NCBI GenBank assembly: GCA_964016985.1
Contig: OZ024825.1
Location: 27,705,893-27,769,892, forward strand
DNA length: 64,000 nt
Source: Anodontia alba
Taxonomy: Eukaryota; Mollusca; Bivalvia; Lucinida; Lucinidae
Direction of reading: 5' to 3'
Under the pieces are notes generated by a model, which saw only the letters and a list, made by a program, of their open reading frames with translations, was not told where the DNA came from and did no database searches. The translations under genes and the position numbers were made by a program. Numbering within the stretch: the stretch's first letter is position 1; each line of letters starts with the position of its first letter. Positions 5,302 through 64,000 of this stretch are shown here, piece after piece.

Positions 5302-5304
<3 letters not shown>

Positions 5305-5349
<45 letters not shown>

Positions 5350-5362
5350 TTGTGTGTGTGTG
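5305..5362. repeat. (GT)n microsatellite
   Basis: About 42 bases of uninterrupted GT, then CTTT and more GT. It lies in what is inferred to be the LINE 5' region. Confidence 0.9.
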
Positions 5363-9784: not shown

Positions 9785-9790
9785 AATAAA
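9785..9790 (+). terminator. LINE polyadenylation signal
   Basis: AATAAA lies 13 bases upstream of the inferred 3' end of the LINE. Confidence 0.6.
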
Positions 9791-9803
9791 AATATGTTTA
9801 AAC

Positions 9804-9815
9804 CAAAAAATCAAC
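9804..9815. repeat. candidate target-site duplication, right copy
   Basis: Exact match to 4587-4598, directly after the LINE 3' UTR. Confidence 0.5.
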
Positions 9816-10378: not shown

Positions 10379-10646
10379 CTCGGTAAAAAACGTAATGGAC
10401 CAGAAACCGTGTTGGATCATAACTTTACCATTTCTCAGCCGATTTTCCTAAATCCTGTATCAAATGATACAGAAATTAAAACCTGAAATGAATTCAACCC
10501 AACCATTTCCCAATTACAGCTGAAACTAGATTCAGAGGCTGCAGATTCACATAGGAGTCACTAAACAAAACATGCAAAATCCGTTTTTTTTTTTGTTTTT
10601 TTTTTTTTTTTTTGTTTTTTTCTGACCTGGACATTAAAATTGTTTC

Positions 10647-12003
10647 TACGAGGGTCCTGCAAAAAGTTTTGTCACTGGATTCGGATTACTTCAGTGTTAC
10701 GTTTTATCAAACATATTTCTATAACAAACCTTCAAAGTAATTCCCCTTTACTGAAACACATTTTTGTAACCTTTCTACCCAGTCGCAAAAAAAAACAACA
10801 GATAAATAGTCTTCTTTTGGTATCTGTTTGAGACGCTGATAATTAGCGCTGCCAAGAGAACTTCTAGACGTATACTTATTTCCAGAAAGCATTTTCTTAA
10901 GCCTTGGAAATTTGGAAATAAAAAGAAATCACAGGGACTCAGGTCAGGTGAATAAGGTGGATGGTTTAAAACTTTCACCTGTTCAGAAGCCAAAAAAGAC
11001 TGAACAACCTCACACTTATGAGAGGAGGCATTGTCATATAAAAGGTGGACTCCTGACCATCCTTCGCTTGGTCGTTTCTTATTGTAAAACTCTTTCACTT
11101 TCTTCAGTACAGAATTCTTGTAGAATCGGCCAGTGACTGTATGACCAGATTGACAAGGCACTTGAACGACTGGCCCACTTGAATTAAAGAAAATTGCGCA
11201 CAACATCTTTTTCGAACTTATGGTTCTCTTGGCATATATGGGCGTTTATTTATCTTTTCGCTTCCATTGCTTATTATCAGCCCTTCTTTGTGGCTCAAAC
11301 ATGTGCACCCAGGTTTCATCACCTGTTAGCAAGTTAGAAATAACCCAACTATTACAGTCTTTGTATGTTTTCAAAAGTTCCCGGGCACATTTAAGGCGTT
11401 GTGGTTTTTGCTCCTCAGTGAGCAAATGAGGTACCAACCTAGCGCAAACCTTTCTCTGGTCCAAACGCTTTCTCAGAATTGTTTGCACACTGTCTTCTGA
11501 TATGCCAGTACAACTAGCTATATCTTTGACAGACAATCGCGCATCTTTTTCGACCACAATCTTTACAGCAGCGATATTAGCCTTGGTAACAGAGGTATTA
11601 GGCCTTCCAGGACGGGTATCATCTTCAACAGAAAATTTCCCAGCTTTAAAAGCTTTAACCCACCTAAAAACTGTGCGCATTGAAATGGTCTGAGGTCCAA
11701 ATATACCACACAATTCATTAAATATCTGCTTTGAATCTATATACCTAATGCGGCATTTAATATAGCTACGAATTTCAGTCTTCTGGTCCATGTTCCAATG
11801 TAACAAGTAAATTGGTCAGTGTATATGACTGCATCTATTTCAATTTAAAATAAATCGGTCAGTTGGAAAGCAATTTGCACGAAATAAACGGGTATTGTTA
11901 GCTATTCAACACGCCATTCAAGTGCAGTGAAGCATTTTAAAATATACCTGGGATAAAACAAAGGAAACCTATTAGTGACAGAACTTTTTACATGACCCTC
12001 GTA
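10647..12003 (-). mobile_element. mariner transposon (copy 1), TA-flanked
   Basis: Terminal inverted repeats of 27 bases lie at 10647-10673 and 11977-12003, including the TA target. They begin TACGAGGGTCCTGCAAAAAG and TACGAGGGTCATGTAAAAAG, matching at 24 of 27 positions. The length of 1357 bases is normal for mariner. The transposase lies inside on the minus strand and is broken. The insertion is at a TA inside a ~450-base MITE. Confidence 0.88.
10730..11806 (-). pseudogene. mariner transposase, inactivated (D34D type)
   Basis: The minus-strand reading starts at 11806 (or at the internal Met of MDQKTEIR, 11791). It contains the paired helix-turn-helix region, including the WVKAFKAG and DDTRPGRP linker, then catalytic GDETW, YDNASSH and PYSPDLSPCDFF. 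Exactly 34 residues separate the second and third aspartates, the mariner signature. An in-frame TAA at 11246-11248 splits the ORF after QWKRKDK; the frame continues unchanged with AKRTISSKK. After the third aspartate there are two frame changes, near 10855 and at the T/A-run near 10790. Beyond them a different frame restores CDWVERLQKCVSVKGNYF. No intact product is possible. Confidence 0.9.
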
Positions 12004-22299: not shown

Positions 22300-22755
22300 C
22301 TTAATCTGTTTGCCCTCTGTCATACATGTCATTAAGTTTCAGTCCATTTACTACCTATTGCTGTGTCTATAAATAGCTGGACGAGTGACAAACAATGACT
22401 TTCTGTGGCTTCTGATCTGGGTCTACATTATTTACCCGGACTCACGAAAACACGCCTATATAGTTTTGACCCCTTAAACCCCCTTTTATGCAGTAAAACT
22501 GGGGTTTACAGGGGTATACATTAAAATTCTTATTTCTGCTAAAATAGATTGTGGGTACTCGTTAGAACCGCCTCGCCGAGGCGGTTCAAACACGTACCCA
22601 CAGTCTATGTTTTGAGCAGAAATATGAAAACTACTAGAATTTTTCATCTGATTTTTTTTTTTTTTTTTTTTTTTATTTTTTGGTGGTAAAACTCAATATA
22701 TTTGAATAGGCGTGTTTTCGTAATGTGTCTGTCTGAACATCAGGTTAAATATGGT
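22300..22755 (+). mobile_element. MITE family A containing a nested family E MITE
   Basis: The left part, GTCCATTTACTACCTATTGCTGTGTCTA to TGGGTCTACATTATTTACCCGGA, ends at 22440. The right part resumes at about 22722 with TGTCTGTCTGAACATCAGGTTAAATATGGTATA. The intervening 280 bases are a whole family E copy. Confidence 0.75.
22441..22721. mobile_element. MITE, family E (complete copy)
   Basis: The left end CACGAAAACACGCCTATATAG is inverted at the right as AATAGGCGTGTTTTCGTAATG. The centre is a near-perfect hairpin: GTGGGTACTCGTTAGAACCG, CCTCGCCGAGG, then the complementary arm, flanked by TTTCTGCTMAAA-type sequence. A poly-T lies at 22650-22672. Other copies lie at 23694, 29705, 41541, 43961, 47095 and 58086. 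Confidence 0.85.
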
Positions 22756-23697: not shown

Positions 23698-23936
23698 ATT
23701 TCACCTCCAAAACTAAAATTTTTCAGATAAAAATTCTGATATTTTTCATATTTCTGCTCAAAACATAGATTGTGGGTAATCGTTAGAACCGCCTCGGTGA
23801 GGCGGTTCTAACGAGTACCCACAATCTATGTTTTTTGAGCAGAAATAAGAAAAATAATGTATATCCCTGTAAACCCCAGTTTTGCTATATAAAAGTGGGG
23901 TTTTAGAGAGTCAAAAGTATATAGGCATGTTGATGT
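23694..23936. mobile_element. MITE family E, end-truncated
   Basis: It has the central hairpin GTGGGTAATCGTTAGAACCG, CCTCGGTGAGG and the complementary arm, and the CCCTGTAAACCCCAGTTTTGCTATATAAAAGTGGGG block. Both outer terminal repeats are decayed or missing. Confidence 0.7.
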
Positions 23937-29704: not shown

Positions 29705-29964
29705 CAATATATTCAAATATACTGAAAATTTTACTACCAAAAAATGAAAATTTTCAGACAAAAAAAAATTCTGATATTTTTCATGTTTCTGCTCAAAACA
29801 CAGACTGTGGGTACTCGTTTAGAACCGCGGTTCTAACGAGCGCCCACAATCTATGTTTTGAGCAGAAATATGAAAATAATGTATACCCTTGTAAAATCCA
29901 GTTTTATTATATAAAAGTGGGGTTTAAGGGGGTCAAAATTATATAGGCATGTTTTCGTGATGAT
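29705..29964. mobile_element. MITE family E abutting the LRR splice acceptor
   Basis: The family E central hairpin is partly deleted (TCGTTTAGAACCGCGGTTCTAACGAG). The right terminus ATAGGCATGTTTTCGTGATGAT ends at 29964, only seven bases before exon 2. The left terminus is missing. Confidence 0.8.
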
Positions 29965-29971
29965 TTTTCAG

Positions 29972-30119
29972 AGATACACAGATCCTTTGCAGCTGTGGCA
30001 TGAAATGGATTTTAACAGACTGGAAGAGATGGAATACAGTTACCATAGACGGCAAGTGTGGCGCACCAGAACTGGATATTAAGACTTACATTTCGAAATA
30101 TCTGCCAGCCTGTCCGTAA
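29972..30119 (+). CDS. LRR protein, exon 2 (LRRCT cap and stop)
   Basis: Translated in the phase set by exon 1: DTQILCSCGMKW, ILTDWKRWNTVTIDG, KCGAPELDIKTYI, SKYLPACP, stop (TAA 30117-30119). The CxC...C...C pattern with the LxCxCxMKWILTDWK signature is a classic LRR C-terminal cap, so exons 1 and 2 together make a complete capped solenoid. The protein ends two residues after the last cysteine with no membrane anchor or GPI-like tail, supporting secretion. The exon is 148 bases. Confidence 0.88.
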
Positions 30120-41540: not shown

Positions 41541-41806
41541 TTACGAAAACACGCCTATTCAAATATATAGAAGATTTCACCTCCAAAAATTGAAAAATAT
41601 TCAGATAAAAAACCCGATCTGCTCAAAACACAGATTGTGGGTACTCGTTAGAACCGCCTCGGCGAGGCGGTTCTAACGAGTCCCCACAATCTATGTTTTT
41701 GAGCAAAACTAAGAAAAATAATGTATACCCCTGTAAACCCCAGTTTTACTATATAAAAGTGGGGTTTAAGAGGGTCTAAATTATATAGGCGTGTTTTCGT
41801 GATGAT
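41541..41806. mobile_element. MITE family E directly upstream of the P450 pseudogene
   Basis: The left end ATCATTACGAAAACACGCCT and the right end AGGCGTGTTTTCGTGATGAT are inverted with one mismatch. The central near-perfect hairpin has arms GTACTCGTTAGAACCG and GGTTCTAACGAG around CCTCGGCGAGG. The last six bases (GATGAT, 41801-41806) contain the ATG from which the P450 reading frame begins. Confidence 0.85.
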
Positions 41807-43122
41807 CATTCTTGTCTTCATACTTGTTTTCTTGGTATCATACGTATTTTACTCAAAACCAAGAGGGATTCCACACGGCCTAGCCTCCATTCCACTAATA
41901 GGCAGCTATTCATTCGTAAAGCATCTACGAAAATGAAAGGGATATGTTGTGTTCATGCATGCAGCTAAGAAAAAAAAGGAAAGGCATTTAGCTTCGAATT
42001 TGCGAATCAGCTGGTTGTTGTATTGAATGGTTAGAATATGATTCATCAAGCTTTGGTGAAGCAAGCCGAATCGTTCAGCGATAGACCTACTTATATACGA
42101 ATTCTCAAAGACATGCTTAAAGATGGCAAAGGTATATTACTTCAGAATTGTACTCACCAATGGAAGATAATGTGTAGAGTTACCTTGCTGGCACTGCGTT
42201 ACTTTGGAGTTGGAGGAGATTATTGCGGAAGTAAAAGCTACTTCTAAAGTTTTGCGAGCAACAAAAGGTAAAGCTATTGAAATGGCACCGCTCCAAAATA
42301 TTATTGGAAATGTTATATTCTGAACCATCTTTGAAAAACGGTATAATTACGAAGATCCAGAATTTCACAAAATTCGTAAAATCTTGAATATTATTGTTTG
42401 CGAACAGGGACTGTGGTATAGCCAATTTCTTTCCTCTATGGATCTTAAAAAAAATATTTTTCTATAAAGTTCCCGATGCAATCACAAACGCGAATGGAAA
42501 ATGATGCAAAGATCAACGAATATATATGTGGACATGTACAAGAACACAGAGAAACATTTAATGAAAACCATATTCGAGACTTTGTTGACTTGTATATACA
42601 GGTATCATGTGACAGTAAAGATGGTGAGCTGGAGACATTCACGAAAGGTAATATGCTTCGTGTCATTTTAGATTTGTTTCAAGCCGGTTAAGAAACTATG
42701 TCAAACAGCCTAGAATGGGCCTTCCCACGTATGTCTGAACATCCAGAAATAGAGAGGAAGTGTCAAGAGGAAATAGATTACATCTTAGGGGACAAAAAAA
42801 GTAAATAGAATATGCAGACAGAGGAAAGCTGAAATACGTTGATGCAACACTGATGGAAATTCAAAGATTGGCCAAAACAATACCTTCCACAGTAGCACAG
42901 AGCACGTGAAGACACGAAGTTAATATGCTACAACATTTCTAAGCATACCATTGTTATTGCAAATGTCTGTTCCGCAATGCTAGACCAGTACATTGGGAAG
43001 AACCGAACAAGTTTGAACCAGAATGGTTCTTTGATGAAACTGGAAATCTTACCAAACGGGAAGCTTTAATTTCTTTCTCAGTTGGCCAAAGAGCATGTCT
43101 GGGACATCCGTTAGCTAGAATG

Positions 43123-43128
43123 GAGCTA
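43123..43128. repeat. target-site duplication GAGCTA, left copy
   Basis: The six bases GAGCTA immediately precede the left terminal repeat and recur at 46705-46710. Deleting the insertion and one copy restores ATGGAGCTATTCCTC (Met-Glu-Leu-Phe-Leu) of the P450. Confidence 0.92.
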
Positions 43129-43960
43129 TGTTGAACCGTATTTCTCACGGAACGGATTCTTCACACGTGTGAAAAATTCGGTCGGATTTGTCACGCGGCG
43201 TGAAGAATTCGACCGAATTTTTCACAGCTGCCGAACGTATTCCTCACCTATCTGTGACAAACTCGTTCGGTATCAGTTTTATATATAGCACGCAAACGAA
43301 TTTGTCACCTTTCAAAAGAAACCCTAAAAAAAGTTCCTTATTTTCATGCACGGATTTCTCACAAACGTATTTGTCACAGCTTATGATATAAAACATACGA
43401 TTAACCATTTAATACAATTTCGAGGTAATATATTTTTATCATGCATATCTTTTAATCGAGTGAGAGATTTATTATTTATTGTATTATTATTTTTAACTTC
43501 GAATATTATTGGATATCATAAAATGAAATAAATGAAATGTCATATCTGTTTCTTGATACCTATGGATTTGTTCAATAATATCAATCATCCCTTATTCTAT
43601 ACAGATTTCGACAAATCTTATTATAAATATAAGATTGTTGGTACTGATATCAAATATTCTAATTGTAAAGATATCTATAAATTATGGATATCTGTAAAGA
43701 GTTTTATTGATATCTATAACTAATTATGGATATTAATAATTATATATAATTATACCCAATTTGTGAATATTTTATTTCGAAATATCGATATCGAAAAAAT
43801 CAGTCTTTATATTGTTATCTTAAACTTGAAATGTAAATTATTGATATAAATCAGCCCGACTTTAATACTTTAAGATATCAATGCGAATTGTTTGTAACAA
43901 TGGATAAATATTGGTAATTGATAATCGTGATTGTGAAAAGCCACAAATGATCTGAATTAT

Positions 43961-44310
43961 ACATTAAGAAAACAAGCCTATGTAATGAATACCCCGGCAA
44001 ACCCCACTTTATATAGGAAAAAGTGAGGGTTGCAGGGCTATTCATTATTCCTTATTTCTGCTATAAAAATTGTGGGTACTCGTTCAAACCGCCTCAGCGA
44101 GGCGGTTACTGAGGCGTTTCGAACGTGTACCCACAATTAATGATTTGAGGAGAAATAAGAAAGGTATCAAAATTTTTCCTCTGAAAATCCTCTTCGGCAA
44201 AATGCAATGTATTTGAATAGATATGTTTTCCTTATGAGGAAAAAGTGGGGTTTGTTGGGGTGTTCATTATTTCCTTATTTCTGCTCTAAAACATAGATTA
44301 TGGGTACTCA
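43961..44310. mobile_element. nested MITE family E copy plus fragment
   Basis: 43961-44240 has degraded family E ends (TTAAGAAAACAAGCCTATG / AATAGATATGTTTTCCTTA) and the hairpin GTGGGTACTCGTTCAAACCGCCTCAGCGAGGCGG. 44240-44310 repeats only the left internal block (GGGGTTTGTTGGGGTG...TTTCTGCTCTAAAACATAGATT). Confidence 0.75.
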
Positions 44311-46520
44311 AATGTAAAATATCCGACTTAATAGGTCAAACATGAAGAATTCGATCGAATACTTTACAGATGTGAACAGTTTCACCTAATTCGACAAATT
44401 TATCTCATATTCAGCAGAATACATCACATGTGAAAAATCCGACCGAATTTCTCACACCTATATTCGCCGATAATGTCTCGTGTAAAATATTCGACCGATT
44501 ATGTCAAACGTGAGAAATTCAATGATATACTACACGGCTGTGGAAAAATCGACCTAATTCGTACAAGTTATGACTTATTGGACAGAAAACGTTACATGTG
44601 AAAAATGCGACCGAATTTCTCACACCTTTATTCACCGAAAGTGTGTCGCCTGTTTGACATCTGACCAAATATAGCACACGTGAGTAATTCCATCGAATTT
44701 TTCACAGCTGTGAAAAATGTCCACCGAATTCGTCACAGTCATGATATATTCGACAGAATACATCACATGTGAAAAATCCGACCGAATTTCTCACACCTAT
44801 ATTCGCCGAAAATATCACATGTAAAATATCCCACTGAATATATCAAACGTGAGGAATTCGATTGAATACGTCACGGATGTGAACAATTAGACCTAATTCG
44901 TCACAGTTATGACATATTCGACAGAATTCATCACATGTGAAAAAATCCGACCGAATTTCTCACACCTATATTCGCCGATAATGCCACGTGTAATCTACTC
45001 GACCGATTATACCAAACGTGAGAAATTCAATGATATACTGCACATATGTGGCAAAAAGCGATCGAAGTCATACAAGGTGTGACATATTGGACAGAATACA
45101 TCACATGTGAAAAATCCAACCGAATTTCTCGCACCTATATTCGCCGAAAATATCACATGTAAAATATCCCACTGAATATATCAAACATGAGGAATTCGAT
45201 TGAATACGTCACGGATGTGAACAATTAGACCTAATTCGTCACAGTTATGACATATTCGACAGAATTCATCACATGTGAAAAAATCCGACCGAATTTCTCA
45301 CACCTATATTCGCCGATAATGCCACGTGTAATCTACTCGACCGATTATACCAAACGTGAGAAATTCAATGATATACTGCACATATGTGGCAAAAAGCGAT
45401 CGAAGTCATACAAGATGTGACATATTGGACAGAATACATCACATGTGAAAAATCCAACCGAATTTCTCACACCTATATTTGCCAAAATTATCAAATGTAA
45501 AATATCCGACTTAATAGGTCAAACATGAAGAATTCGATCGAATACTTCACAGATGTGAACAGTTTGACCAAATTCGACAAAGTTATCTCTTATTCGGCAG
45601 AATACATCACATGTGAAAAATCCGACCGAATTTCTCACACCTATATTCGAAGATAATCTCGTGTAAAATATTCGACCGATTATGTCAAATGTGAGAAGTT
45701 CAATGATATACTACACGGCTGAGGAAAAATCGACCTAATTTGTACAAGTTGTGACTTATTGGACAGAAAACGTCACATGTGAAAAATGCGACCGAATTTC
45801 TCGCACCTTTATTCACCGAAAGTGTGTCGCCTGTTTGACATCTGATCAAATATAGCACACGTGAGTAATTCCTTCGAATTTTTCATAGCTGTGAAAAAAT
45901 TCCACCGAATTCGTCACAGTCATGATATATTCGACAGAATACATCACATGTGAAAAATCCGACCGAATTTCTCACACCTACATTTGCCGAAAATATCAAA
46001 TGTAAAGTTCCGACTGAATATGTCAAACATGAGGAATATGATCGAATACTTCACAGATGTGAACAATTTGACCAAATTCGTCAAAGTCATCACATATTCA
46101 GCAGAATACATCACATGTGAAAAATTCGACCGAATTTCTCTCACCTATATTTTACCAAAATGTGTCACATGTAAGAAATTCGACCATATATGTCACTTGT
46201 GAGGAATTCGATCCAATACTTTACAGCTGTGAAACTATGGGAAAATAGACTTAACTCGCCATACAGTTGTGACACATTTGACCGAAAACATCACATATGA
46301 AAAATATGTTCCAGTTTCTCACACCTATAATTCACCAAAGTTGTCACATGTAACACATCCGACCAAATATATCTGGCACGTGATAAATTCGATCGAAAAC
46401 TTCCCTGCTGTACAAATAATTCGACCGAATTATTCATAGTTGTGACATATTTGACCAAATACATGACATGTGAAAAATCCGACCGAATTTCTCATACCTA
46501 TATTTCACCGAAAATGTTTC
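44300..46520. repeat. ~169-bp satellite with a ~338-bp dimeric order
   Basis: The phrase CCGAATTTCTCACACCTATA recurs near 44448, 44612, 44781, 44951, 45120, 45289, 45459, 45627, 45797, 45966, 46130, 46307 and 46480, a period of about 165-175 bases. Two unit types alternate in the middle: 44794 matches 45134 and 44964 matches 45303 almost base for base, so a dimer of about 338 bases has been duplicated. Most of each unit is made of short GTGAAAAATCCGACCGAATT-like inverted motifs, also found at the ends of the host element. Confidence 0.85.
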
Positions 46521-46704
46521 CATTCATTAAAAATTTGTTTACTGGTGTGCAAGCAATAGAAATTCTAATGTGTGACAAAATCGTTTGGGTTAAAAACTCT
46601 AAATCCGCAAAACGTATTCTTCACCTTTGTCCGAATGTGAAAAATTCGGTCGAATTTATCACACCAGCGTGAGGAATCCGTTCCGTGAGAAATACGGTTC
46701 AACA

Positions 46705-46710
46705 GAGCTA
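46705..46710. repeat. target-site duplication GAGCTA, right copy
   Basis: Matches 43123-43128, with the P450 reading ELFLVFSHM resuming here. Confidence 0.92.
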
Positions 46711-46899
46711 TTCCTCGTCTTTTCTCATATGCAAACATTCAGTTTTGTAAGGAGCGCGACGACTTCAAGCATTCAATGGAACCAAAACCCAATCAAGCGG
46801 CATTGGCCCCACTACCGTATAGGCTAAGACCGAGCAAGCATTAACTAGCATATATATAATCATTGAACGCTTAGCACTCTGAGTAAAAGTTTCAGCAGA

Positions 46900-47205
46900 C
46901 AGCATACTGAAATGTTTTCTTATTTTCCCTAGAAAACAAGATGTGACATTTCATGCAAATAAGCTGTAATGGAGACATTTTGCATGAAATGTCAAATCCT
47001 GTTTCTGATAAAAAAAAAAAAAAAAAAAAAGAAAAGAAAAATGTCATTGTCGTCTGCTGAATTAGCGCAGAGAGTGGTAAATGTTAAAGTAGTCATCACA
47101 AAAACATACCTAAATAATTTTGACCCCCATTAAACCCCATTATTATTTTTCTTATTTCTGCTCAAAAACATAGATTATGGGCAATCGTTAGATTACAGGT
47201 TACAG
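46900..47205. mobile_element. 'CAGACGACA' MITE and partial family E
   Basis: 46900-47094: TTCAGCAGACAGC, AAGATGTGACATTTCATGC / GCATGAAATGTCAAATCCTG inverted, a poly-A tract (47010-47030), and TTGTCGTCTGCTGAATTAGCGC. 47095-47205: family E left half beginning CATCACAAAAACATACCTAA. Bases 47206-47740 are unassigned. Confidence 0.6.
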
Positions 47206-47740: not shown

Positions 47741-50700
47741 GTGTTCAGGATGTGAACCGTTCGTAGACTGAACCGTGGACTGAAAAGTTGAATAGTGAAC
47801 CGCGACCTCAATCGTGGTCTGGCCAATTTTGAATCGTATCCTGAATCGTGAACCGTAACCTGAATGGTGTTCTGGCCAGTTTTGAATCTTACACCGTTGC
47901 CTGAATCGTGTCTTGGCCAATTTTGAATCGTGTTCTGAATCGTGAATTGTGACCTGAATCGTGGTCTGACCAATTTTGAATCCTATCCGAAATCGTGAAC
48001 CTTGACCTGAAACGTCTTCTTGCCAATTTGGAATCGTACACTGGATCGTGAACAGAGAGATCTGAATCTTGAACTGTGAATCTTGAGACGTGAGCATGAA
48101 TCTGAACCAGATGCTGAATTTTATGCCGGTCTTTTTTAATCTTACGCTGAATCGTAAGCTGGTCAATTTTGAAACTTATGCTAAATTCTAAAACAGACGC
48201 AGACTCGTACGCTGGTCGTTTTTTAATCGTACGCTGTATCCTGGACAAAACGCTGAATAATACGCTGGTCAATTTTGAATCATGCACTAAATGCTGAACC
48301 AGATCCTGAATCGAACGCTGGTTATTTTCGAATCGTATTCTGAATCTTGAACCAGACGCTAAATAATAGTCTGGTCATTTTGGAATAGTACGCTGAATCT
48401 TGAACTAGATGCTAAATAATATGCTAGTCATTTTGAAATCGTACGCTGAATCAGACGCTGAAAAATACGCTATACATTTTTTAATCGTACACTGAATGCT
48501 GAATCAGACGCTGGATAATACGATTGTCATTTTTGAATTGTACACTGTATCCTGAACCAGACGCTGAATAATACGCTTGCCATTTTTTGAATCGTACTCA
48601 GAATCCTGAACCAGACGCTGAATAATATACTGGACATTTCCTACCAAAATAGTTCCAGTCATTCCAGACATTCTGGACAGTGACATTTTTAATCGTACAC
48701 TAAATATAGAACCAGACGCTGAATAATACCCTGAATATTTTTAAATAATATACACTGAATACTGAACAAGACGCTGAATAATACGCTGGACATTTTTTAA
48801 TCCTATGCTGAATCCTAAACCAGACGCTGAATAATACCCTGGATATGTTTAAATAATACGCTGAATACTGATCCAGACACCGAATAATACGCTGGACATT
48901 TTCAATCGTACACTGAATGCTGAACCAGACGTTAAAATATACCCTAGAATTTTTTTAATCATACGCTGAATCCTGAACAAGACGCTGAATAATACCCCGG
49001 ACATTTTTAAAAATACACTGAATCCTAAACCAGACGCTGAACAATATCCGAGAAATATTTGAATCATACGCTGAATGCTGAACCAGACGCTGAATAATAC
49101 CCTGGACATTTTTTAATAATACGCTAAATTCTGAACCAGATGCTGAATAATACGCTGGACATTTTTTAATCGTACGCTGAATTCTGAACTAGACGCTGAA
49201 TAATACCCTGAACATTTTTGAATACGCTGACTCCTGAACCAGACGTTGAAAAAAACCCGGACATATTTGAATACTACGTTGAATCCTGTACTACATGCTG
49301 ACCAATACCTTGGACATACGAGCGTATTTAATCGTACGCTGAATCCGAACCAGACCTTGAATAATACCCTGGAAATATTTGAATAGTACAGTGAATCCTG
49401 TACTAGACGCAAAATAATACCCCGGACTTTTTCAATCGAATGCTGAATCCTGAACAAGACGATGAATAATATTCTATACATATTTTAATCATTCGCTGAA
49501 TGCTGAACCAGACACTGAAAAATACGCTGGAATTTTTTTGATAATACGCTGAATCCTGAATCAGACGCTGAATACCACGCAGGACATTTTTGGATCGTAC
49601 GCTGAATCCGGAACAGACGCTGAATAATACCCTGAACAATTTTTAATAATACGCTGAACCCTGAACCAGACGCTGAATAATAGGCTGGTATTTTCTTTTA
49701 ATAATACGCTAAATCCTGAAACAGACGCGAAATAATAATCTCTAAATTTTTAAATTATATTCTGAATACTGAACCTGACGCTGAATAATACGCTGGACAT
49801 TTTTAATCGTTCGCTGAATCTTGAACCAGACACTGAATAATACCCTGGACATTTTGTAATCTTTCGCTGAATACCGAACCAGACGCTGAATAATACCCTG
49901 GACATTTTTTAATCTTACGCTGAATACTGAATCAAACGCTGAATAATACCCTGGACATTTTTAATCGAACGCTGAATGCTGAACCAGACGGTGAACAATA
50001 CCCTGGAAATTTTTTAATCGTACACTGAATACTGAACCAGACGTTGATTAATACGCTGGACATTTTTAACCGTACGCTGAATACTGAACTAGACGCTGAA
50101 TAATACCCTGGACTTTTAAAAAAAAAAATATGCTGAATCCTGAACCAGACATTGAACAAAACCCTACAGATATTTGAATCATACGCTGAATGCTGAATCA
50201 GACGATGAAAAATACCATGGACATTTTTTAAAAATACGCTGAATACTGAACCAGACTATGAATAATACGCTGGACATTTTTAATCGTACGCTGAATCCTG
50301 GAACAGACGCTGAATAATACCTTGGATAATTTTTAATCGTTTGCTGAATACTGAACCAGAATAATACCCTGGACATTTTTTAACAATACACTGAATACTG
50401 AACCAGACACTGAATAATACCCTGGACATTTTTTAATAATATGCTGAATCCTGAACCAGATAATACGCTTGTAATATTTTGAATAATACCCTGAATAATA
50501 CAATGATTACTAAACCGGACGCTGAATAATAACCAGGATATATTTTAAAAGCTACAATGAATCCTGAAACAGACACTGAATAATACGCTGGTCATATTTT
50601 GAATAACACCCTGAATAATACTCCGAATACTGAACCAGAGGCTGAAAAATATCCTGGACATATTTTAATTAATACCCTGAATCCTGAACCGTCGCTAAAT

Positions 50701-53700
50701 AATACGGTGTTCATACTTTTAATAATACCCTAAATAATACGTAGAATACTGAACGGGACGCTGAATAATACCCTGGACATATTTTGAATAATACTCTGAG
50801 TCCTGAACCAGATGCTGAATAATACGCTGGTCGTATTTTGAGTAATATCCTGAATACTGAACCAGACGCTGAATAATAAGCTGGTCATATTTTGAATAAT
50901 ACCCTGAATAATACACTGAATACGGAAGCGGACATTTAATAATATACTGAATATTACTGAACAATACGCTGAATCCTGAACAAGACGCTGAATAATACCA
51001 TGGACATTTTACGCTGAATTCTGAAACAGACGCTTGTCTTATATTGAATAATACCCTGAATCCTGAACCAAACGCTGAATAATACGCTGGTCATATTTTG
51101 AATAATACCCTGAATAATACGCTGAATCCTGAACCAGACGCTGTTTAATACCCTGGACATTAATGAATAATACGCTGAATCCTGAACCAGACGCTGAATA
51201 ATACGCTTTTCGTATTTTGAATAATACCCTGAATCCTGAACCACACGCTGAATAATATGTTGGTCTTACTTTGAATAATACCTTGAATAAAACGCTGAAT
51301 ACTGAAGGGGACGCTGAATAATACTCTGGACATATTTTAATAATACTCTGAATCCTGAACCAGACGCTGAATAATATGCTGGTCGTATTTTGAATAATAT
51401 CCTGAATACTGAACCTGACGCTGAATAATACCGTGGACTTTTTAATATTACTCTGAATTCTGAACCAGACGTTCAATAATACGCTTGTCTTATATTGAAT
51501 AATACCCTGAATCCTGAACCAAACGGTGAATAATACGCTGGTCATATTTTGAATAATACCCTGAATAATACGCTGAATCCTGAATCAGACGCTGAATAAT
51601 ACCCTGGACATTAATAAATAATACGCTGAATCCTGAACCAGACGCTGAATAATACGCTTCTCGTATTTTAAATAATACCCTGAATCCTGAACCACACGCT
51701 GAATAATATGTTGGTCTTATTTTGAATAATACCCTGAATAATACGCTGAATACTGAAGGGGACACTGAATAATACTCTGGTATTATTTTGAATAATACTC
51801 TGAATCCTGAACCAGACGCTGAATAATATGCTGGTCATATTTTGAATAATACTATGAATTCTGAATCAGACGCTAAATAATATGCTGGTCGTATTTTGAA
51901 TAATTTCCTGAATACTCAACCAGACGCTGAATAATAAGCTGGTCATAGTTTGACTAAAACACTGAACAATACGCTGAAAACTGAACCGGATGCTGAATAA
52001 TACCCTGGATATTTTCAATAACACGCTGAATTCTGAACCAGACGCTGAATATTTCCCTTGACGTTTTCAATAATACGCTGAATCCTGAATCAGATGCTGA
52101 ATAATTTGCTGGTCATATTTTAAATAATACCCCGAATAATACGCTGAATGCTAACGTGGATGCTGAATTATACCCTGGACATATTTTTGAAAAATACGTT
52201 GAATACTGAACGAGACGCTGAAAACTGCCCTGGACATAAGAATAATACGCTGAATACTGAACCAGACGCTGAATAATACGCTGGTCGCATTTAGAATAAT
52301 ACCCTGAAGCCTAAACCAGACGCCAAATTATACGCTTGTCATATTTTGAGTAATACCCTGAATAATACACTGAATACTAAAGCGGACGCTGAATGATACA
52401 CTGGATATTTTTGAATAATACGCTGAATTCTAAAGTAGACGCTGAATCATACCCTGGACAGTTTTTAATAATACGCTGAATCCTGAACCAGACCTGAATA
52501 ATACGCTTGTCGTATTTTGAATAATACACTGAATCCTGAACCAGACGCTGATTAATATGCTGGTCATATTTTGAATAATATTCTGAATAATACACCGAAT
52601 CCAGAACTAGACGCTTAATAATACCCTGGGGATTTTCTAATAATACGCTGAATCGTGAACCAGACGCTGAATAATACGCTGGTCGTATTTTGAATAATAC
52701 ACTGAGGCCTGCACCGGACGCTGAATAATACGCTGGTCATATTTTGAATAATAGCCTGAATAATGCGCTGAATCCTGAACCAGACGCTGAATAGTACTCT
52801 TCTTTTTATAATACGCTGAATCCTAAACCAGACGCTGAATAATATACTGGTCGTATTTTGAATACTACACTGAATCCTGAACCAGACGTTAAATAACAAG
52901 CTGGTCGTATTGTGAATAATACCCTGGAGCCTGAACCAGACGCTAAATACTGCGCTGGTCATATTTTGGATATTACCCTGAATGATACCTGTATCCTGAA
53001 CTGGACGCTGAATAATACCCTGGCAATTTTTTTTATAATAAGTTGAATCCTGAACCAGACGCTGAATTATACCCTGGACATTTTTTTAATAATACGCTAA
53101 ATCCTGAACTAGACGCTGAATACGCTGGTCATATTTTGAATAATATCCCGAATAAAGTCCTGAACCAGACGCTGAATAATATGCTGGTCGAATTTTGAGT
53201 AATACCCTGAATCCTGAACGAGACGCTGAAAAATACGCTTGTCATATTTTGAATCCTGAACCTAACGCAGAATCATACCCTGGACATTTTTTTAATAATA
53301 CGCCGAATCCTGAACCTGACGCTGAATAATACGCTCCTCGTATTTGGAATAATACACTGAATCCTGAACCAGACGCTGAATAATACGCTGGTCATATTTG
53401 AATAATACGCTGAATTCTAAACTAGACGCTGAATAATACCCTGGACATTTTTAATAATATGCTGAATCCTGAAACAGACGCTGAATAATACGCTCATCGT
53501 ATTTGGAATAATACACTGAATCGTGAACCAGACGCTGAATAATACACTGGACATTTTTAATATTACGCTGAATTTTGAACCAGACGTTGAATAATACGCT
53601 TATCGTATATTGAATAATACCCTGAATCCTGAACCTATCGCTGAATAATACGCTGGTCATATTTTGAATAATACCCTGAATAATACGCTGAATCCTGAAC

Positions 53701-56700
53701 CAGACGCTGAATTATACCCTGGACATTAATGAATAATGCGCTGAATCCTGAACCAGACGCTGAATAATACGCTTTTCGTATTTTGAATAATACCCTGAAT
53801 CCTGAACCACTCACTGAATAATACGTTGGTCTTATTTTGAATAATACCATGAATAATACGCTAAATACAGAACGGGATACTGAATAATACTCTGGATATA
53901 TTTTGAATAATACTATGAATCCTGAAACAGACGCTGAATAATATGCTATTCGTATTTTGAATAATATCCTGAATACTGAACCAGCAGGTGATATTTTGAC
54001 TAATACCCTGAACAATACGCTGAATACTGAACCGGACGCTGAAAAATACCCTGGACATTTTTAATAATACGCTGAATTCTGGACCAGACACTGAATATTT
54101 CCCTTGACATTTTTCAATAATACGCAGAATCCTTAACCAGCCGCTGAATAATTTCTGGTCATATTTTGAATAATACCCTGAATAATTCGCTGAATGCTAA
54201 CGCGGAAGCTGAATAATACCCTGGACATATTTTGAAAAATTCATTGAATTCTGAACGAGACGCTGAATAATGCCCTGGACATTACTTAATATTATAACAC
54301 GCTGAATACTGAATCAGGCGCTGAATAATACGCTGGCCGTATTTTGAATAATATCCTGAAGCCTGAACCAAACGCTAAATAATACGCTGATAATATTTTG
54401 AATAATACCCTGAATAAATCGCTGAATACTGAAGCGGACGCTGAATAATATACTGGACATTTTTTTTAATAGTATGCTGAATATTAAACTAGACGCTGAA
54501 TAATACTCTGGACATTTTTTAATAATACACTGAATCCTGAACCAGACGCTGAATAATACGCCGGTCATATTTTGAATAATACACCGAATCCTGAACTAGA
54601 CGCTGATTAATACGCTGGTCGTATTTTGAATAATATTCTGAATAATACGCTGAATCCTGAACCAGACGCTGAATTATACCTTGGACGTTTTTTAAAAATA
54701 CGCTGAATCCTGAACCAGACGCTGAATAATACGCTAGTCGTATTTTGAAAAATACACTGAGGCCTGAACCAGAACCTGAACCTAAATAATACGCTGGTCA
54801 TTTTTTGAATAATAGCCTGAATAATACGCTGAATTCTGAACCAGACGCTGAATAATACTCTGGACATTATTTCCTATAATACGCTGAATCCTGAACCAGA
54901 CGCTGAATTACATGTTGGTTTTATTTTGAATAATACCCTGAAGTCTGAACCAGACGCTAAATACTGCACTGATCATATTTTGAATAATACCCTGAATGAT
55001 ATCTGAATTCTGAACTGGACACTGAATAATACCCTGAACACTTTTTAAGAATACGTTGATTCCTGAACCAGACGCTGAATAATACCCTGGACATTTTTTA
55101 ATGATACGCTGAATCCAGAACCAGACGTTGAATAATACACTGGTCATATTACCTGGACTTTTTTAATTATACGCCGAATCCTGAACCACACCCTGAATAA
55201 TAAGCTCTTCGTATTTGGAATAATACACTGAATCCTGAACCAGACTCTGAATAATACCCTGGTCATATTTTGAATAAGATCCTGAATAATACGGTGAATC
55301 CTGAAAGAGACGCTGAATAATATGCAGGTCGTATTTTGAGTAATACCCTGAATCCTGAAGCGGACGTGTAACAATACACTGAATATATTTAATAATAAGA
55401 TATATCGTGAACCAGACGCTGAATAATACCCTGGACATTTTAATATTACGCTGAATTTTTAACCATACGCTGAATAATACGCTGGTCATATTTTGAATAA
55501 TACCCTGAATAATACGCTGAATCCTGAACAAGACGCTGAATAATACCCTTGGCATTAATGAATAATACCCTGAAGCCTGAAACAGACGCAGAATAATACG
55601 CTTGTCATATTTTGAATGATACCCTGAATCCCGAACCTCACGCTGAATAATACGTTGGTCTTTTTTTAATAATACCCTGAATAATACGCTGAATACTGAA
55701 CGGGACACGGAATAATACTCTGGACATATTTTGAATAATACTCTGAATCCTGACCCAGACGCTGAATAATATGCTGGTCGTATTTTGAATAATATCCTGA
55801 ATACTGAACCAGACGCTGAATAATATGCTGGTCATATTCTGAATAATACTATGAATCCTGAACCAGACGCTAAATAATATGCTGGTCGTATTTTGTATAA
55901 TTTCCTGAATAGTGAACCAGACGCTGAATAATAAGCTGGTCATATTTTGACTAATACCCTGAACAATACGCTGAATACTGAACCGGACGCTGTATAATAC
56001 CCTGGACATTTTTAATAATACGATGAATTCTGAACCAGATGCTGAATATTTCCCTTGACATTTTTCAATAGTACGCTGAATTCTGAACCAGACACTGAAT
56101 AATTTGCTGGTCATATTTTGAATAATACCCTGAATAATATGCTGAATGCTAACGCGGAAACTGAATAATACCCTGATCATAATTTGAAAAATACGTTGAA
56201 TTCTGAACGAGACGCTGAATAATGCCCTGGACATTACCGAATAATATGCCAAATACTGAATAATACGCTGGTCGTATTGAATAATACCTTGAAGCCTGAA
56301 GCAGACGCTAAATAATACGTTTGTCATATTTTGAATGATACCCTGAATAATACGCTGAATACTGAAGTGGACGCTGAATAATACACTGGACATTTTTTAA
56401 TAATACGCTTAATCCTAAATTAGAGGCTGGATAATATCCTGGACATTTCTGAATATTACGCTGAATCCTGAGCCAGACACTGAATAAAACGCTGGTCGCA
56501 TTTTGAATAATAAACTGAATCCTGAACCAGACGCTGATAATTACGCTGGTCATATTTTGAATAATATTCTGAATAATAAGTTGAATCCTGAACCAGACGC
56601 TGAATATACCTTGGACATTTTTTAATAATAAGCTGAATCCTGAACCAGACGCTGAATAATACGCTGGTCGTATTTTGAATAATACCCTGAATCCTTACCC

Positions 56701-57890
56701 TGAATCCTGAACCAGACGCTGAATAACAAGCTGGTCGTATTTTGAATAGTACCCTGAAGCCTAAACCAGACGCTAAATACTGCGCTGGTCACATTTTGAA
56801 TAATACCCTGAATGATACCTAAATCATGAACTGAATGCTGGATAATACGCTGGACATTTTTTAATAATACGTTGAATCCTGAACAAGACGAGGAATAATA
56901 CACTGCACATTTTTTAACTAATACGCCGAATCCTTACCAGACGCTAAATAATAATCTGGACATATTTTGAATATCCTGAATAATACAGTGAGTCCTGAAC
57001 CAGACGCTAAATAATATGCCGGTCGTATTTTGAGTAATATCCTGAATCCTGAACATGACGCTGAAAAATACACTGGTCATATTTTGAATTATATCCTGAA
57101 TAATACGGTGAATCCTGAGCCTGACGCTGAATAATACCTTGGACATTTTTAATAATATGCCGAATCCTGATCCAGACGCTGAATAATACGCTCGTCGTAT
57201 TTGGAGCCAGACGATGAATAATATGCTGGTCAAATTTGAATAATACCCTGAATAATACGCTGAATCCTGAACCAGACGCTAAATAATATCATGGACATTT
57301 TTTAATAATACGCTGAATACTGAACTAGACGCTAAATAATATGCTAGTCGTATTTTGAATACTACACTGAATCCTGAACCAGACGCTAAATAATATCATG
57401 GACATTTTTTAATAATACGCTGAATCCTGAATCTGACGCTGAATAATACGCTGGTCAAATTTTGAATAATACCCTGAATAGTTCACTGAATACTGAATAC
57501 TGAAGCGGACGTTTGATAATAACCTGAATATTTTTATCAGTACACTGAATCCTGAACCAGACGCTGAATAATACCCTGGACATTTTTGATATTACGCTGA
57601 ATTCTGAAGCAGACGTCGAATAATACGCATATCGTATATTGAATAATACCCTGAATCCTGAACCAGACGCTGAATAATACCCCGGTCATATTTTGAATAA
57701 TACCCTGAATAATACGCTGAATAATCCTGAACCAGACGCTGAATAATCCTCTGGACATTTTTGTTAATATTACGCGGAATCCTGAACCGGACGCTGAATA
57801 AGACGCTGGTCGTATTTGAATAATATCCTGAATACTGAACCACACGCTGAATCCTGAACCGTGAATAATGAACCGTGCACCAGACGCTAA
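47741..57890. repeat. 10-kb satellite array, ~54-bp units with ~2-kb higher-order repeats
   Basis: Roughly 180 degenerate units lie in one direction. A typical unit is CTGAATCCTGAACCAGACG, CTGAATAATACGCTGGTCG, TATTTTGAATAATACC: 54 bases, with 53-base and ~67-base variants. Unit type changes along the array. At 47.74-48.3 kb GAATCGTGAACCGTGACC units dominate. At 48.3-50.5 kb units have GGACATTTTTAATCGTACG. At 50.5-57.9 kb they have GGTCATATTTTGAATAATAC. In the last block a rare variant ATTTCCCTTGAC recurs at 52051, 54097 and 56048, showing higher-order repeats of about 1.95-2.05 kb. The minus strand of the consensus has few stop codons in any frame, which explains long spurious frames. No gene is called. 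Confidence 0.95.
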
Positions 57891-58085
57891 CTTTTCGCTC
57901 GGCTGGTTGCTTTGCTTTTTTTTTTTTTTTTTTTTGAGTCTGAGCTGTGCTTCTTGATTGTGGCCTGGGTATATCCACTTATATTTCTTTACACTGTCAT
58001 GGATTGTTTACACTTCCTCTTGGTGTCATTATTGGATTATGATCCGTGACCGTGTCTATTCCTGGACATCTTCTGTACTATTTTC
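57891..58085. other. array edge, poly-T and unique sequence
   Basis: A 23-base poly-T lies at 57918-57938. No coding signal. Confidence 0.6.
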
Positions 58086-58356
58086 ATGACGAAAACATAC
58101 CTATATAATGTTGACCCCCTTAAACCCCACTTTTATATAGTAAAACTGGGGTTTAGAGGGGTATACATTATTTTTCTTATTTCTGCTCAAAATCATAGAT
58201 TGTGGGTATTCGTTAGAGAGGCGATTCTAACGAGTACCCACAATCTATGTTTTGAGCAGTAATATACGTAACAAGTATCAGATGTTTTTGTATGAAAATT
58301 TTCATTTTCTGGTGGTAAAATTTTCAGTGTAGTTGAATAGGCGTGTTTTCGTGATG
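58086..58356. mobile_element. MITE, family E
   Basis: Left CATGACGAAAACATACCTATA, right ATAGGCGTGTTTTCGTGATGCAT. The central hairpin has lost part of its left arm (GTGGGTATTCGTTAGAGAGGCGATTCTAACGAGTACCC). Confidence 0.8.
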
Positions 58357-60920: not shown

Positions 60921-62263
60921 TACGAGGGCCATTTGAAAAGTCCTGAAACTCGAACGATATTTCCGAGCTCCGTGCACGGATTTACATAAACAGCACATGC
61001 ACGGAAAGCTACATCTCCCCTCTTGAACATGGTATATAAAATTTACGTGCAGATGCAAACTCGCATGTATAAATTCAAGGCGTCTCATGCAAGGGTTTCG
61101 CTATTAACCAAATTTTCGATGAATTCAGCAGTTATGGCTCTCGAGGAGCAAAGGGCTTACATCGAAATTCATACATTATTAGGGGCTACGCCAACGGATA
61201 TTAAAGCCGATCTAGACTCTGTTTATGGAAGTCAAGCTGCGTCATATATCACAATTAGAAGATGGTTCTTGCGATTTGAGCAGGGTAGAGAGTCCCTTGA
61301 AGATGACCCACGTTCAGGACGTCCCTTGTCAGCGTTCAGTGAAGATGACGTCACTGCCGTCAAACGTCTGCAAGATGAGGACGCTCGTTATACAGTGGAT
61401 GAGATTTCTAAGTCATTGAGCATTAATTCGTCGGCGGTGTTTATGATTTTGAAGCAAAGATTAGGACTACGCAAGATATGTGCGCGTTGGGTACCCCACC
61501 TTTTAAGCCAAGCTGAAAAGGACAGGTCAGTGAAAATCGCCTCGGAATTATTACAAATATATGAAGGATGTGATGATAAACGTTTGTGTGAAATCGTAAT
61601 AGGTGATGAAACATGGATATCATTCTTTGAACCTGAAGGGAAGGAGAATAACAAAGTTTGGATTGGAGAAAACGGGGCTAGGCCCCAGATTGCCCGTAGA
61701 TCCAGGTCTGTTAAACGTGTTTTATACGCATTGTTCTTTGACGCTAGAGGAATTGTGGCCAGAATTCCAGTTCCTGAACACAAGACTGTCACTGGTATCT
61801 ACTACGCTGAACAAGTTCTACCTGTTGTTGTTAACCATTATATGGCGACGCGTCCACGAACCGGGGTGCGGGGCCTGAAGCTTCTCCACGACAACGCCCA
61901 AGCCCACTGCTCAGCCGTGGTGCAGGACTATTTGAAAACACAAGGATTTAAAACTTTACCACATCCCGCGTAGAGTCCAGATCTGGTACCATGTGACTTC
62001 TGGTTGAAACTTGTTATCAAAAAGTGCCTTAGTGGACGCAAATTCGAAGCCCGCACAGCTGTCGGAAGAGCGTTATTTCAATGCACAGACAGTATACCTA
62101 AATGTGACTATAAAAAACGCTCAAAAAGTGGATTAAACGCTTGAAAAAATGTGTAGAGGTCAAAGGTGAATACTTTGAGGGGCTGGACTAGTCGAATTTG
62201 GAATGGTGAGTGTAGCGGCCATAACACGCCACAAGTTTCAGGACTTTCCAAACGTCCCTCGTA
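60921..62263 (+). mobile_element. mariner transposon (copy 2), TA-flanked
   Basis: Terminal repeats TACGAGGGCCATTTGAAAAG (60921) and, inverted, TACGAGGGACGTTTGGAAAG (ending at 62263) continue for about 30 bases with few mismatches, and TA is at both ends. Length 1343 bases. The transposase is inside on the + strand. It differs clearly from copy 1 in both protein and ends, so it is a separate lineage. Confidence 0.88.
61119..62191 (+). pseudogene. mariner transposase, inactivated (D34D type)
   Basis: The frame is open from 61023; the likely start is MNSAVMALEEQ (61119 or 61134). It contains the helix-turn-helix region ending LEDDPRSGRPLS, WVPHLLS, and catalytic GDETWIS, HDNAQAH and PCDFW with 34 positions between the last two aspartates. 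A TAG at 61971-61973 replaces the conserved Tyr of the YSPDL box (HPA-stop-SPDLVPCDFW). Farther on, a frameshift near 62112 moves the end KKWIKRLKKCVEVKGEYFEGLD into another frame (stop 62189-62191). Otherwise it is well preserved: one nonsense change and one frameshift separate it from an intact ORF of about 355 residues. Confidence 0.9.
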
Positions 62264-63514: not shown

Positions 63515-64000
63515 GTCAACACACAGAACATTGAACAAAAAGTCCTACAATGAAAGTACCGTCTTGGAGAGGTCAGTAATATATTACCGGGGGCTAAAGC
63601 TAGCTTATAATCTGCACTATGGCGAAGTGCAGAACATTGAACAAAAGGTGCTACAATGGAAGTAACGCCTTGGAGAGGTCAGTAATATATTACCGGGGGC
63701 TTAAGCTAGCTTATAATCTGCACTATGGCGAAGTGCAGAACATTGAACAAAAAGTGCTACAATGGAAGTACCGCCTTGGAGAGGTCAGTAATATATTACC
63801 GGGGGCTTAAGCTAGCTTATAATCTGCACTATGGTGAAGTGCAGAACATTGAACAAAAAGTGCTACTATGGAAGTACCGCCTTGGAGAGGTCAGTAATAT
63901 ATTACCGGGGGCTTAAGATAGCTTATAATCTGCACTATGGCAAAGTACAGAACACTGAACAAAAATGCTACAATGAAAGTACCGCCTTGGAGAGGTCAGT
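63515..64000. repeat. 106-bp tandem repeat running off the window
   Basis: Each unit contains CAGAACATTGAACAAAAAGTGC, TACAATGGAAGTACCGCCTTGG, AGAGGTCAGTAATATATTACC and GGGGGCTTAAGCTAGCTTAT. Successive ATGGCGAAGTGC points are 106 bases apart (63619, 63725, 63831). About 4.5 copies are visible and nearly identical, implying recent amplification. The short open frames are translations of the repeat and are not called. Confidence 0.92.

What the first reader, a model, noticed from the sequence alone, without database searches (positions are those of the whole stretch)
43129..46704. A 3.6-kb satellite-bearing terminal-inverted-repeat element inserted in a P450 with a 6-bp duplication
The sequence shows perfect 31-base terminal inverted repeats, an exact GAGCTA duplication, and restoration of the P450 reading (MEL|FLVFSHM) when it is removed. 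Its interior is mostly a ~169-base tandem satellite whose motifs resemble the element's own subterminal sequence, with no transposase. Bivalves are known to have non-autonomous elements holding tandem repeats. I do not recognise this one, and it suggests a route by which satellites are seeded and moved.
Basis: partly seen in the sequence, partly recalled or inferred. Interest (0 to 1): 0.88.

Follow-up and report, generated by a model that had tools for sequence, protein, structure and literature searches.

The report
Jumping gene family carrying satellite arrays
A mobile DNA element in a probably bivalve genome carries a satellite-DNA array built from the same short motif as the element's own ends; near-identical copies at unrelated sites indicate that whole arrays are moved, and a longer relative holds a likely gene for the enzyme that moves them.

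Summary
The 3,576-bp element (43129-46704) has 31/31-bp terminal inverted repeats (TIRs), an exact GAGCTA duplication, and interrupts a P450 coding stretch. The assembly (1.86 Gb) holds 439 such ends (up to 3 mismatches; control 0). Of 36 fetched pairs, 28 have exact 6-bp duplications, consensus nAGCTn; lengths 91-6,111 bp. The ~169-bp satellite is about six ~28-bp palindromic modules; its 13-bp half-site (YCGAATTTNTCAC) also stands at +9 and +25 of both ends. Array length varies. Two copies 99.7% identical over 3.24 kb, array included, have unrelated flanks and different duplications, so arrays move as cargo. A genome-wide satellite count roughly equals what the elements alone predict (1,440 against ~1,465; 116, 120); one array without TIRs was seen. 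A 10.85-kb relative matches 3,566 of the 3,576 bp and contains an integrase-like gene with an OTU domain, but lacks its right tip. Best reading: a non-autonomous deletion derivative of an integrase-type transposon near IS3EU/GingerRoot or Ginger. That the half-site binds the transposase is inferred.

The parts
43123..43128 (.). left target site duplication GAGCTA
   Evidence: sequence
43129..43159 (+). left terminal inverted repeat, 31 bp, TGTTG... (one half-site from +9; a second from +25 runs to +37, past the perfect repeat)
   Evidence: 439 ends in the assembly
43160..43380 (+). left subterminal region; 43129-43380 holds 8-11 half-sites depending on the matrix, including two full palindromes at 43169-43194 and 43200-43225
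43381..43961 (+). AT-rich core (22% GC), no half-sites; aligned over its whole length in 32 of the 36 fetched copies, partly in 3, absent from the 91-bp copy
43962..44236 (+). hairpin-forming repeat of another family, carried in the element; whole in 25 of 36 fetched copies
44308..46517 (+). satellite array, period about 169 bp, 13 copies; each unit about six 28-bp palindromic modules (11 half-sites in the unit consensus)
46518..46673 (+). right subterminal region with a palindrome at 46637-46662
46674..46704 (-). right terminal inverted repeat, 31 bp (half-sites from +9 and +25 counted from the right end)
46705..46710 (.). right target site duplication GAGCTA
   Evidence: sequence
42958..43128 (+). 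P450 coding stretch (haem-binding region) left of the insertion
46705..46746 (+). continuation of the P450 reading right of the insertion

Best explanation
The element is a non-autonomous internal-deletion derivative of a cut-and-paste DNA transposon whose long form carries an integrase-type (rve) transposase gene with an OTU domain. The transposase cuts at the TG...CA ends and inserts at nAGCTn sites, duplicating 6 bp (duplications and site preference shown; enzyme action inferred). Its recognition half-site, YCGAATTTNTCAC, is inferred (odds of that step alone about 0.55): it stands twice at each end, forms palindromes just inside, and has been amplified as ~28-bp palindromes in units of six into a ~169-bp satellite. 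Once formed, the array is carried whole by transposition (shown by the L034/L047 pair) and grows or shrinks locally by duplication or deletion of units or unit pairs (copy-number variation and 98-99% identical neighbouring pairs seen; the process inferred).
For: Family: 223 + 216 TIR matches with up to 3 mismatches, 0 and 0 for the reversed-pattern control. All 36 pairs that I could form from the 100 listed ends were fetched: 28 exact 6-bp duplications, 5 at 5 of 6, 3 at 2-4 of 6. With the window's own, central GC in 24 of 29 exact duplications against 3.6% GC dinucleotides in the window. Half-site: a matrix trained on the satellite alone finds 8 sites in the left 252 bp and 4 in the right 187 bp, 0 in the 927-bp middle, and 12 in the remaining 60.4 kb; six retrainings (two other seed words, whole array and each half) gave 10-11 and 5-6, with 6-9 outside. 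Cargo: L034 and L047, 3,238 and 3,237 bp, 99.7% identical end to end, with different exact duplications and 194-bp flanks no more alike than shuffled sequence. 178 of 190 satellite units have their nearest relative in another element. Box count 4-19 per copy, the 91-bp copy aside. Long relative on C7: exact left TIR, 10.85 kb, matches 3,566 of 3,576 bp of the window element (satellite units counted as matched by its own satellite); a 776-codon open frame with rve (59.9 bits) and OTU (42 bits) lies between segments shared with other members; no inverted repeats flank the gene inside the element. Remnants made of the two ends (22, 27, 91, 118 bp), three of four with exact 6-bp duplications, fit breaks joined after excision or abortive transposition.
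Against: No binding experiment. The satellite's commonest 13-mer is the palindrome centre, and matrices built on it do not find the TIR (best score -0.1; 3,421 of 20,000 shuffles as good; 2,389 and 4,187 for the half-arrays). Only matrices in the half-site register do (11-58 of 20,000 shuffles as good; 8 of 20,000 random 36-mers reach the first site's score and 0 both). The long relative lacks the last ~10 bp of its right TIR and its right flank shows no matching duplication, so no complete autonomous copy was seen. The gene itself lies in 5.2 kb not found in the 36 fetched copies, so that it belongs to another element nested in this member is not excluded; a second gene copy could not be fetched. 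Which came first, one unit or a long array, is not resolved: 21 of 30 inner branches of the core tree are open.
Confidence: 0.75

Rival explanations
1. The satellite amplified because its palindromes form hairpins that provoke replication slippage and unequal exchange; the likeness to the ends is only because it started as subterminal sequence. It has nothing to do with transposase binding.
For: As single-stranded DNA the left end region folds strongly (z -6.3) and so does one of two tested satellite stretches (z -4.1). Neighbouring units occur as 98-99% identical pairs, as unequal exchange or slippage would give.
Against: The right end region (z -1.9) and the other satellite stretch (z -2.0) fold only moderately. 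It does not explain why the half-site stands at mirrored positions +9 and +25 in both TIRs. The two ideas can both be true.
Confidence: 0.35
2. The integrase-OTU gene belongs to another transposon nested in one family member, and the family's true transposase is unknown.
For: The stretch 3328-8529 of the fetched C7 sequence was not seen in the copies compared, and this C7 copy is the only one read with the gene.
Against: The gene lies between segments shared with other members (up to about 3328 with several long copies, from 8529 with L060); no inverted repeats between its two sides; TG...CA ends and a 6-bp duplication suit an integrase-type enzyme (PMC10045372, PMC2836005, passages).
Confidence: 0.15
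3. A pre-existing genomic satellite was captured by the transposon by chance.
For: One 2.5-kb array without TIRs or core is known (L079).
Against: The half-site is shared with TIRs and subterminal palindromes. Genome-wide box count 1,440 against about 1,465 predicted from elements alone. Of 100 listed box sites, 93 lie within 4 kb of a listed exact TIR, 3 more in two loci with one-mismatch TIRs, 4 in L079.
Confidence: 0.07
4. A solo LTR of a retrotransposon: TGTTG...CAACA ends with a short duplication.
For: TG...CA ends and integrase-type chemistry are shared with LTR elements (PMC2836005, passages).
Against: 31-bp perfect inverted ends, shortened forms down to 22-118 bp, and a long relative with the same left end whose frame has rve plus OTU and no reverse transcriptase match in the 587 residues scanned.
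Confidence: 0.02
5. A non-autonomous Helentron/HINE (Pearl-like) element, a known satellite carrier of bivalves.
For: Central tandem repeats of about 166 bp in oysters sit in such elements (PMC7492417, passages).
Against: True TIRs and 6-bp target duplications, which that paper says Helitrons do not make.
Confidence: 0.01

Closest known systems
IS3EU / GingerRoot DNA transposons (PMC10045372: outline and passages seen)
   Same: Integrase-like DDD/E transposase without a detected zinc-binding HHCC/H2C2 domain; 6-bp target duplications; GingerRoot ends occasionally TG...CA.
   Different: Complete IS3EU families are said to be always TA...TA; the term OTU does not occur in that paper's main text, and no held paper has IS3EU, OTU and transposase together. 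Position in a tree not tested.
Ginger1 DNA transposons (PMC2836005: passages seen)
   Same: TGTNR ends, rve transposase with a C-terminal OTU domain, animals including a gastropod.
   Different: Ginger1 makes 4-bp CCGG/CCGT duplications and has an H2C2 zinc finger; here 6-bp nAGCTn and no such Pfam hit.
Tetris, foldback element of Drosophila virilis, with TIR-220 satellite (PMC4079207: passages seen)
   Same: Non-autonomous element whose internal tandem repeats share sequence with its ends and also form longer satellite arrays; the authors propose transposase-binding repeats.
   Different: 8-10-bp duplications, repeats inside long TIRs, transposase not found; here a single central array, 6-bp duplications, a long relative with an integrase-type gene, free arrays rare.
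Galileo (P superfamily) with transposase-binding sites in TIR tandem repeats (PMC3688188: passages seen)
   Same: Extra transposase-binding sites inside tandem repeats, shown there by gel shift.
   Different: Different transposase family (THAP) and three sites; here about 11 candidate sites per unit, unproven.
Xenopus Xmix/Xstir and miDNA4 MITEs (only as described in PMC9659126 and PMC6947457, passages)
   Same: Satellite-like tandem repeats riding on a DNA transposon.
   Different: miDNA4 is listed as Tc1-mariner, no superfamily is given for Xmix; original papers not seen.
Cg_HINE / Pearl elements of bivalves (PMC7492417: passages seen)
   Same: Bivalve elements carrying about 166-bp satellite monomers between end modules.
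   Different: Helentrons: no duplications, subterminal repeats and a 3' palindrome.

Membership tests
IS3EU / GingerRoot | 6-bp target site duplication | tested here: met
   28 of 36 exact, 5 of 36 at 5/6, 3 of 36 at 2-4/6
IS3EU / GingerRoot | TA...TA ends (IS3EU always; GingerRoot mostly, occasionally TG...CA) | tested here: not met
   Ends are TG...CA (the fetched pairs were chosen by this end); allowed for GingerRoot only (PMC10045372)
IS3EU / GingerRoot | integrase-like transposase core without HHCC domain | tested here: met
   rve found, no H2C2/HHCC Pfam match in the 587-aa piece or in P0121; a weak unseen domain is possible
IS3EU / GingerRoot | transposase falls in that clade | not tested
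   no reference sequences at hand
Ginger1 | TGTNR ends | tested here: met
   TGTTG
Ginger1 | 4-bp CCGG/CCGT duplications | tested here: not met
   6-bp nAGCTn
Ginger1 | C-terminal OTU or Ulp1 domain | tested here: met
   OTU, 42 bits
Ginger1 | H2C2 zinc finger | tested here: not met
   no Pfam match; a weak unseen domain is possible
Foldback / Tetris-like | long TIRs containing the tandem repeats | tested here: not met
   TIR 31 bp (68 bp imperfect); array central, one orientation
Helentron / HINE (Pearl) | no target duplication | tested here: not met
   TIRs and 6-bp duplications
Non-autonomous DNA transposon (functional class) | shares ends and interior with a coding relative | tested here: met
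   3,566 of 3,576 bp matched by the 10.85-kb C7 copy; that copy lacks ~10 bp of its right end

The most novel reading that the evidence does not exclude
The satellite is an amplified array of transposase-binding sites: an integrase-type transposon with an OTU domain, 6-bp nAGCTn duplications and TG...CA ends (a lineage not matching IS3EU, GingerRoot or Ginger1 in full) has non-autonomous copies that compete for transposase by multiplying its recognition half-site (11 per 169-bp unit, up to 116 per fetched element), so that a satellite evolves and spreads as a mobility trait instead of as heterochromatin.
Probability: 0.35. Interest if true: 0.8.

Novelty: new variant of a known kind. Interest (0 to 1): 0.62.

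Why it matters
How satellites arise and scatter is a long-standing question. Here one family offers, in one genome, a long form with an integrase-type gene, a ladder of deletion derivatives with about one to sixteen satellite units, a pair that shows a complete array moving, and a candidate 13-bp site shared by the ends and the array. That makes the 'binding-site satellite' idea, proposed for Tetris and Galileo, directly testable outside flies and in another transposase class.

Tried and rejected
Exact-pattern scans of viral contigs (TIR core; satellite box) and of bacterial/archaeal genome contigs found nothing. Rfam at gathering thresholds found nothing in the window. A protein search with the window's LRR frame did not name the species. 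Two loci first suspected of being other families with the same tip (L071, L076) are 27-bp and 22-bp remnants. The strongest rve matches (contig C240, 330-aa frames) were set aside as probably bacterial (inference; not checked). Only the best 150 of 3,169 rve candidates were scored, and these were not compared with all TIR places: the C7 relative was noticed by eye because one rve match lies about 6 kb inside a TIR. I put the chance of such a coincidence at about 0.1 by hand; the shared interior then confirmed that this locus is a family member. Dada was rejected: no TIRs, sits in small RNA genes (PMC3706591, passages). The direction of array change was tried with a core tree and left open. Rows dropped: L053, L057, L060 (incomplete core) and the 91-bp copy from the tree; the 91-bp copy, units outside 155-180 bp and units close to the ends from the unit comparison. 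The 36 copies were not scanned with Pfam; their longest stop-to-stop frames are 30-199 aa. Of 14 stretches at unpaired ends, 13 show the family's sequence; the stretch L070 was fetched on the wrong side of its end.
Full report
WHAT IS THERE. Window 43129-46704 is a 3,576-bp insertion. Its ends are identical 31-bp inverted repeats, continued imperfectly to about 68 bp. GAGCTA stands on both sides. With the insertion and one duplication removed, a P450 haem-binding reading continues. The gene seems broken in other places as well (my reading of the three frames), so the insertion may be in a relic; no second P450 copy was found in the window. Along the element: left end region 252 bp; AT-rich core 581 bp; a 275-bp hairpin repeat of a family with relatives elsewhere in the window; a 71-bp junction; satellite 2,210 bp, 62% of the element; right end region 187 bp.

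ANATOMY OF THE SATELLITE. Tandem Repeats Finder gives period 169, 13 copies. The ten regular units compared are 70-99% alike, with a higher order: neighbouring pairs repeat with 98-99% identity (lag 338), and another pair recurs with 94-96% identity (lag 1,181-1,183). Each unit consists of about six ~28-bp palindromes; the unit consensus holds 11 copies of a 13-bp half-site, YCGAATTTNTCAC, often back to back. A matrix made from the satellite alone finds 80 sites in it, 8 in the left 252 bp, 4 in the right 187 bp, none in the 927-bp middle, 10 in the 43 kb before and 2 in the 17 kb after the element. That first matrix was seeded with a word I had chosen after seeing both ends and satellite; matrices started from the satellite's second most frequent word and another frequent word, on the whole array and on each half, give 10-11 sites on the left, 5-6 on the right and 6-9 outside. 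On both ends the outermost sites stand at +9 and +25. Against this: the satellite's most frequent word is the palindrome centre, and matrices built on that do not match the TIR.

THE FAMILY. The assembly searched (G000, 1.86 Gb, 317 contigs; window at C5:27705893) has 223 forward and 216 reverse TIR matches with up to 3 mismatches, and none for the reversed pattern. The first 100 places, all exact, were listed. I fetched the 36 pairs that they form. Exact 6-bp duplications: 28 of 36; 5 of 36 match at 5 of 6 bases; the other three at 4, 3 and 2. Together with the window's, 24 of 29 exact duplications have GC in the centre; the two-strand consensus is nAGCTn. 140 ends are preceded by AGCTN exactly. 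Lengths: 91, then 1,543 to 6,111 bp. The core is aligned completely in 32 of 36, partly in L053 (81%), L060 (13%) and L057 (10%), and is absent from the 91-bp copy L036. Three other 1.55-kb copies are 96.6-96.7% identical to the reference copy L066 over their length; these short forms carry about one satellite unit (my reading). The number of satellite-type boxes runs from 4 to 19 and TRF gives up to 16.4 units (L052).

ARRAYS MOVE. L034 (3,238 bp, duplication CAGCTG) and L047 (3,237 bp, AAGCAC) are 99.7% identical from end to end, arrays included, while their 194-bp flanks are no more alike than shuffled sequence (scores 20.0 and 19.4). L045 and L054 are 97.3% identical over their length, but L054 has no matching duplication. 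Of 190 units taken from the fetched copies and the window, 178 have their closest relative in another element and 12 in the same one; near-identical units within L051, L056, L040 and the window show recent local duplication. So arrays are mostly inherited by transposition and edited locally.

FREE ARRAYS. A 36-bp box of the satellite has 1,440 matches with up to 3 mismatches (control 0). The 37 elements studied hold 6.68 each, which predicts about 1,465 for 439/2 elements; this is rough because my sample consists of exact-TIR pairs, and the tool warns that its counts of repeats can be lower bounds. Of the 100 listed box sites, 93 lie within 4 kb of a listed exact TIR; 3 are in L077 and L078, which have one-mismatch TIRs (L077 at one end only); 4 are in one locus, L079, a 2.5-kb array without any TIR (up to 9 mismatches) or AT-rich core within the 6.5 kb fetched. 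L079 may be a freed array or an element that lost both ends.

THE LONG RELATIVE. Ends with another base than A after the first 22 bp of the TIR were not found; after 21 bp six differ from G: three are family members (L073, L074, L075) and three are remnants (L071, L072, L076). One of the 150 scored integrase-core (PF00665) matches lies about 6 kb inside a TIR on C7. That locus (L080 and L081) has an exact left TIR, the left region, a 1.5-kb segment also found in L074 (90-97% identical), the core, 6.6 kb of further sequence with a 776-codon open frame, a short satellite (five boxes) and the right region, 10.85 kb in all. The first 587 residues of the frame have rve (59.9 bits) and OTU (42 bits) domains and no zinc-finger match. 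A database protein identical over the aligned 94% (P0121, 741 aa, 4 members) and relatives at 51-53% (P0122 and P0123 with OTU; P0126 from Dreissena polymorpha, without OTU, 83 members) exist. The window element is matched by this copy over 3,566 of 3,576 bp, its satellite by the copy's own satellite; L060 is a different deletion derivative (its 349-2605 match 8529-10850 of the fetched stretch at 88%). The copy's right TIR lacks about the last 10 bp and its right flank does not match the left, so it is not a complete mobile unit. The gene lies between segments shared with other members, without inverted repeats on its two sides, but no second copy of the gene could be read, so nesting is not excluded.

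REMNANTS. Pieces made of the two ends, 22 bp (L076, TAGCTA on both sides), 27 bp (L071, no exact 6-bp duplication), 91 bp (L036, CTGCTA) and 118 bp (L072, TAGCTC), show breaks inside or removal of the element at duplicated sites, as expected of cut-and-paste movement; they do not distinguish excision from internal deletion. L071, L072 and L076 were found by a pattern that demands 21 bp of the end, so their common breakpoint means nothing.

MECHANISM. Shown: insertion with 6-bp duplication, preference for nAGCTn, relation by deletion to a long form, carriage of arrays, local duplication of units. Inferred: that the C7-type protein moves the family, that YCGAATTTNTCAC is its binding site, and that multiplication of the site was favoured. 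A hairpin-driven slippage origin is the main rival and may act together with it.

COMPARISON. 6-bp duplications, TG...CA ends and an rve core without detected zinc finger point to GingerRoot/IS3EU (PMC10045372); TGTNR ends and OTU point to Ginger1 (PMC2836005); it meets neither definition in full. Functionally it resembles Tetris (PMC4079207) and Galileo (PMC3688188). The bivalve satellite carriers in the papers seen are Helentrons (PMC7492417). Papers were seen as passages found by terms; PMC10045372 also as outline. No paper on this element turned up in the searches, none of which could search by sequence.

Noticed in passing
22446-22651, 23720-23903, 29750-29972, 41618-41811, 58085-58356, fragment near 47101-47195: Relatives of the hairpin repeat nested in the element (ends like CATCACGAAAACACGCCTAT...ATAGGCGTGTTTTCGTGATG): five and a fragment in one 64-kb window.
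   Followed up: partly
48144-57479: A 9.3-kb array of a 53-bp repeat starts about 1.4 kb after the element; no inverted repeats found around it apart from A-runs and the hairpin-repeat family.
   Followed up: partly
63524-64000: A 106-bp tandem array with 95% matches runs off the window's end.
   Followed up: no
10775-11815 (-) and 60990-61973 (+): Mariner-like transposase frames; the second has a Mos1-type HTH match at the cut-off and Transposase_1 just below it; the first is my reading of the translation only.
   Followed up: no
5746-9318 (+): A 1,190-aa open frame with endonuclease and reverse transcriptase domains, a LINE-type frame.
   Followed up: no
G000:C6:13738820-13742832: Ends of two family members appear back to back, separated by only 6 bp (places listed).
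   Followed up: no
G000:C240: Four integrase-core matches of equal score in 330-aa frames within 83 kb on a small contig: possibly bacterial contamination.
   Followed up: no
L043, L059, L062 (interiors): Longer members hold extra interior sequence with a CA/GT microsatellite; about a quarter to a third of these elements is not matched by the C7 relative.
   Followed up: partly
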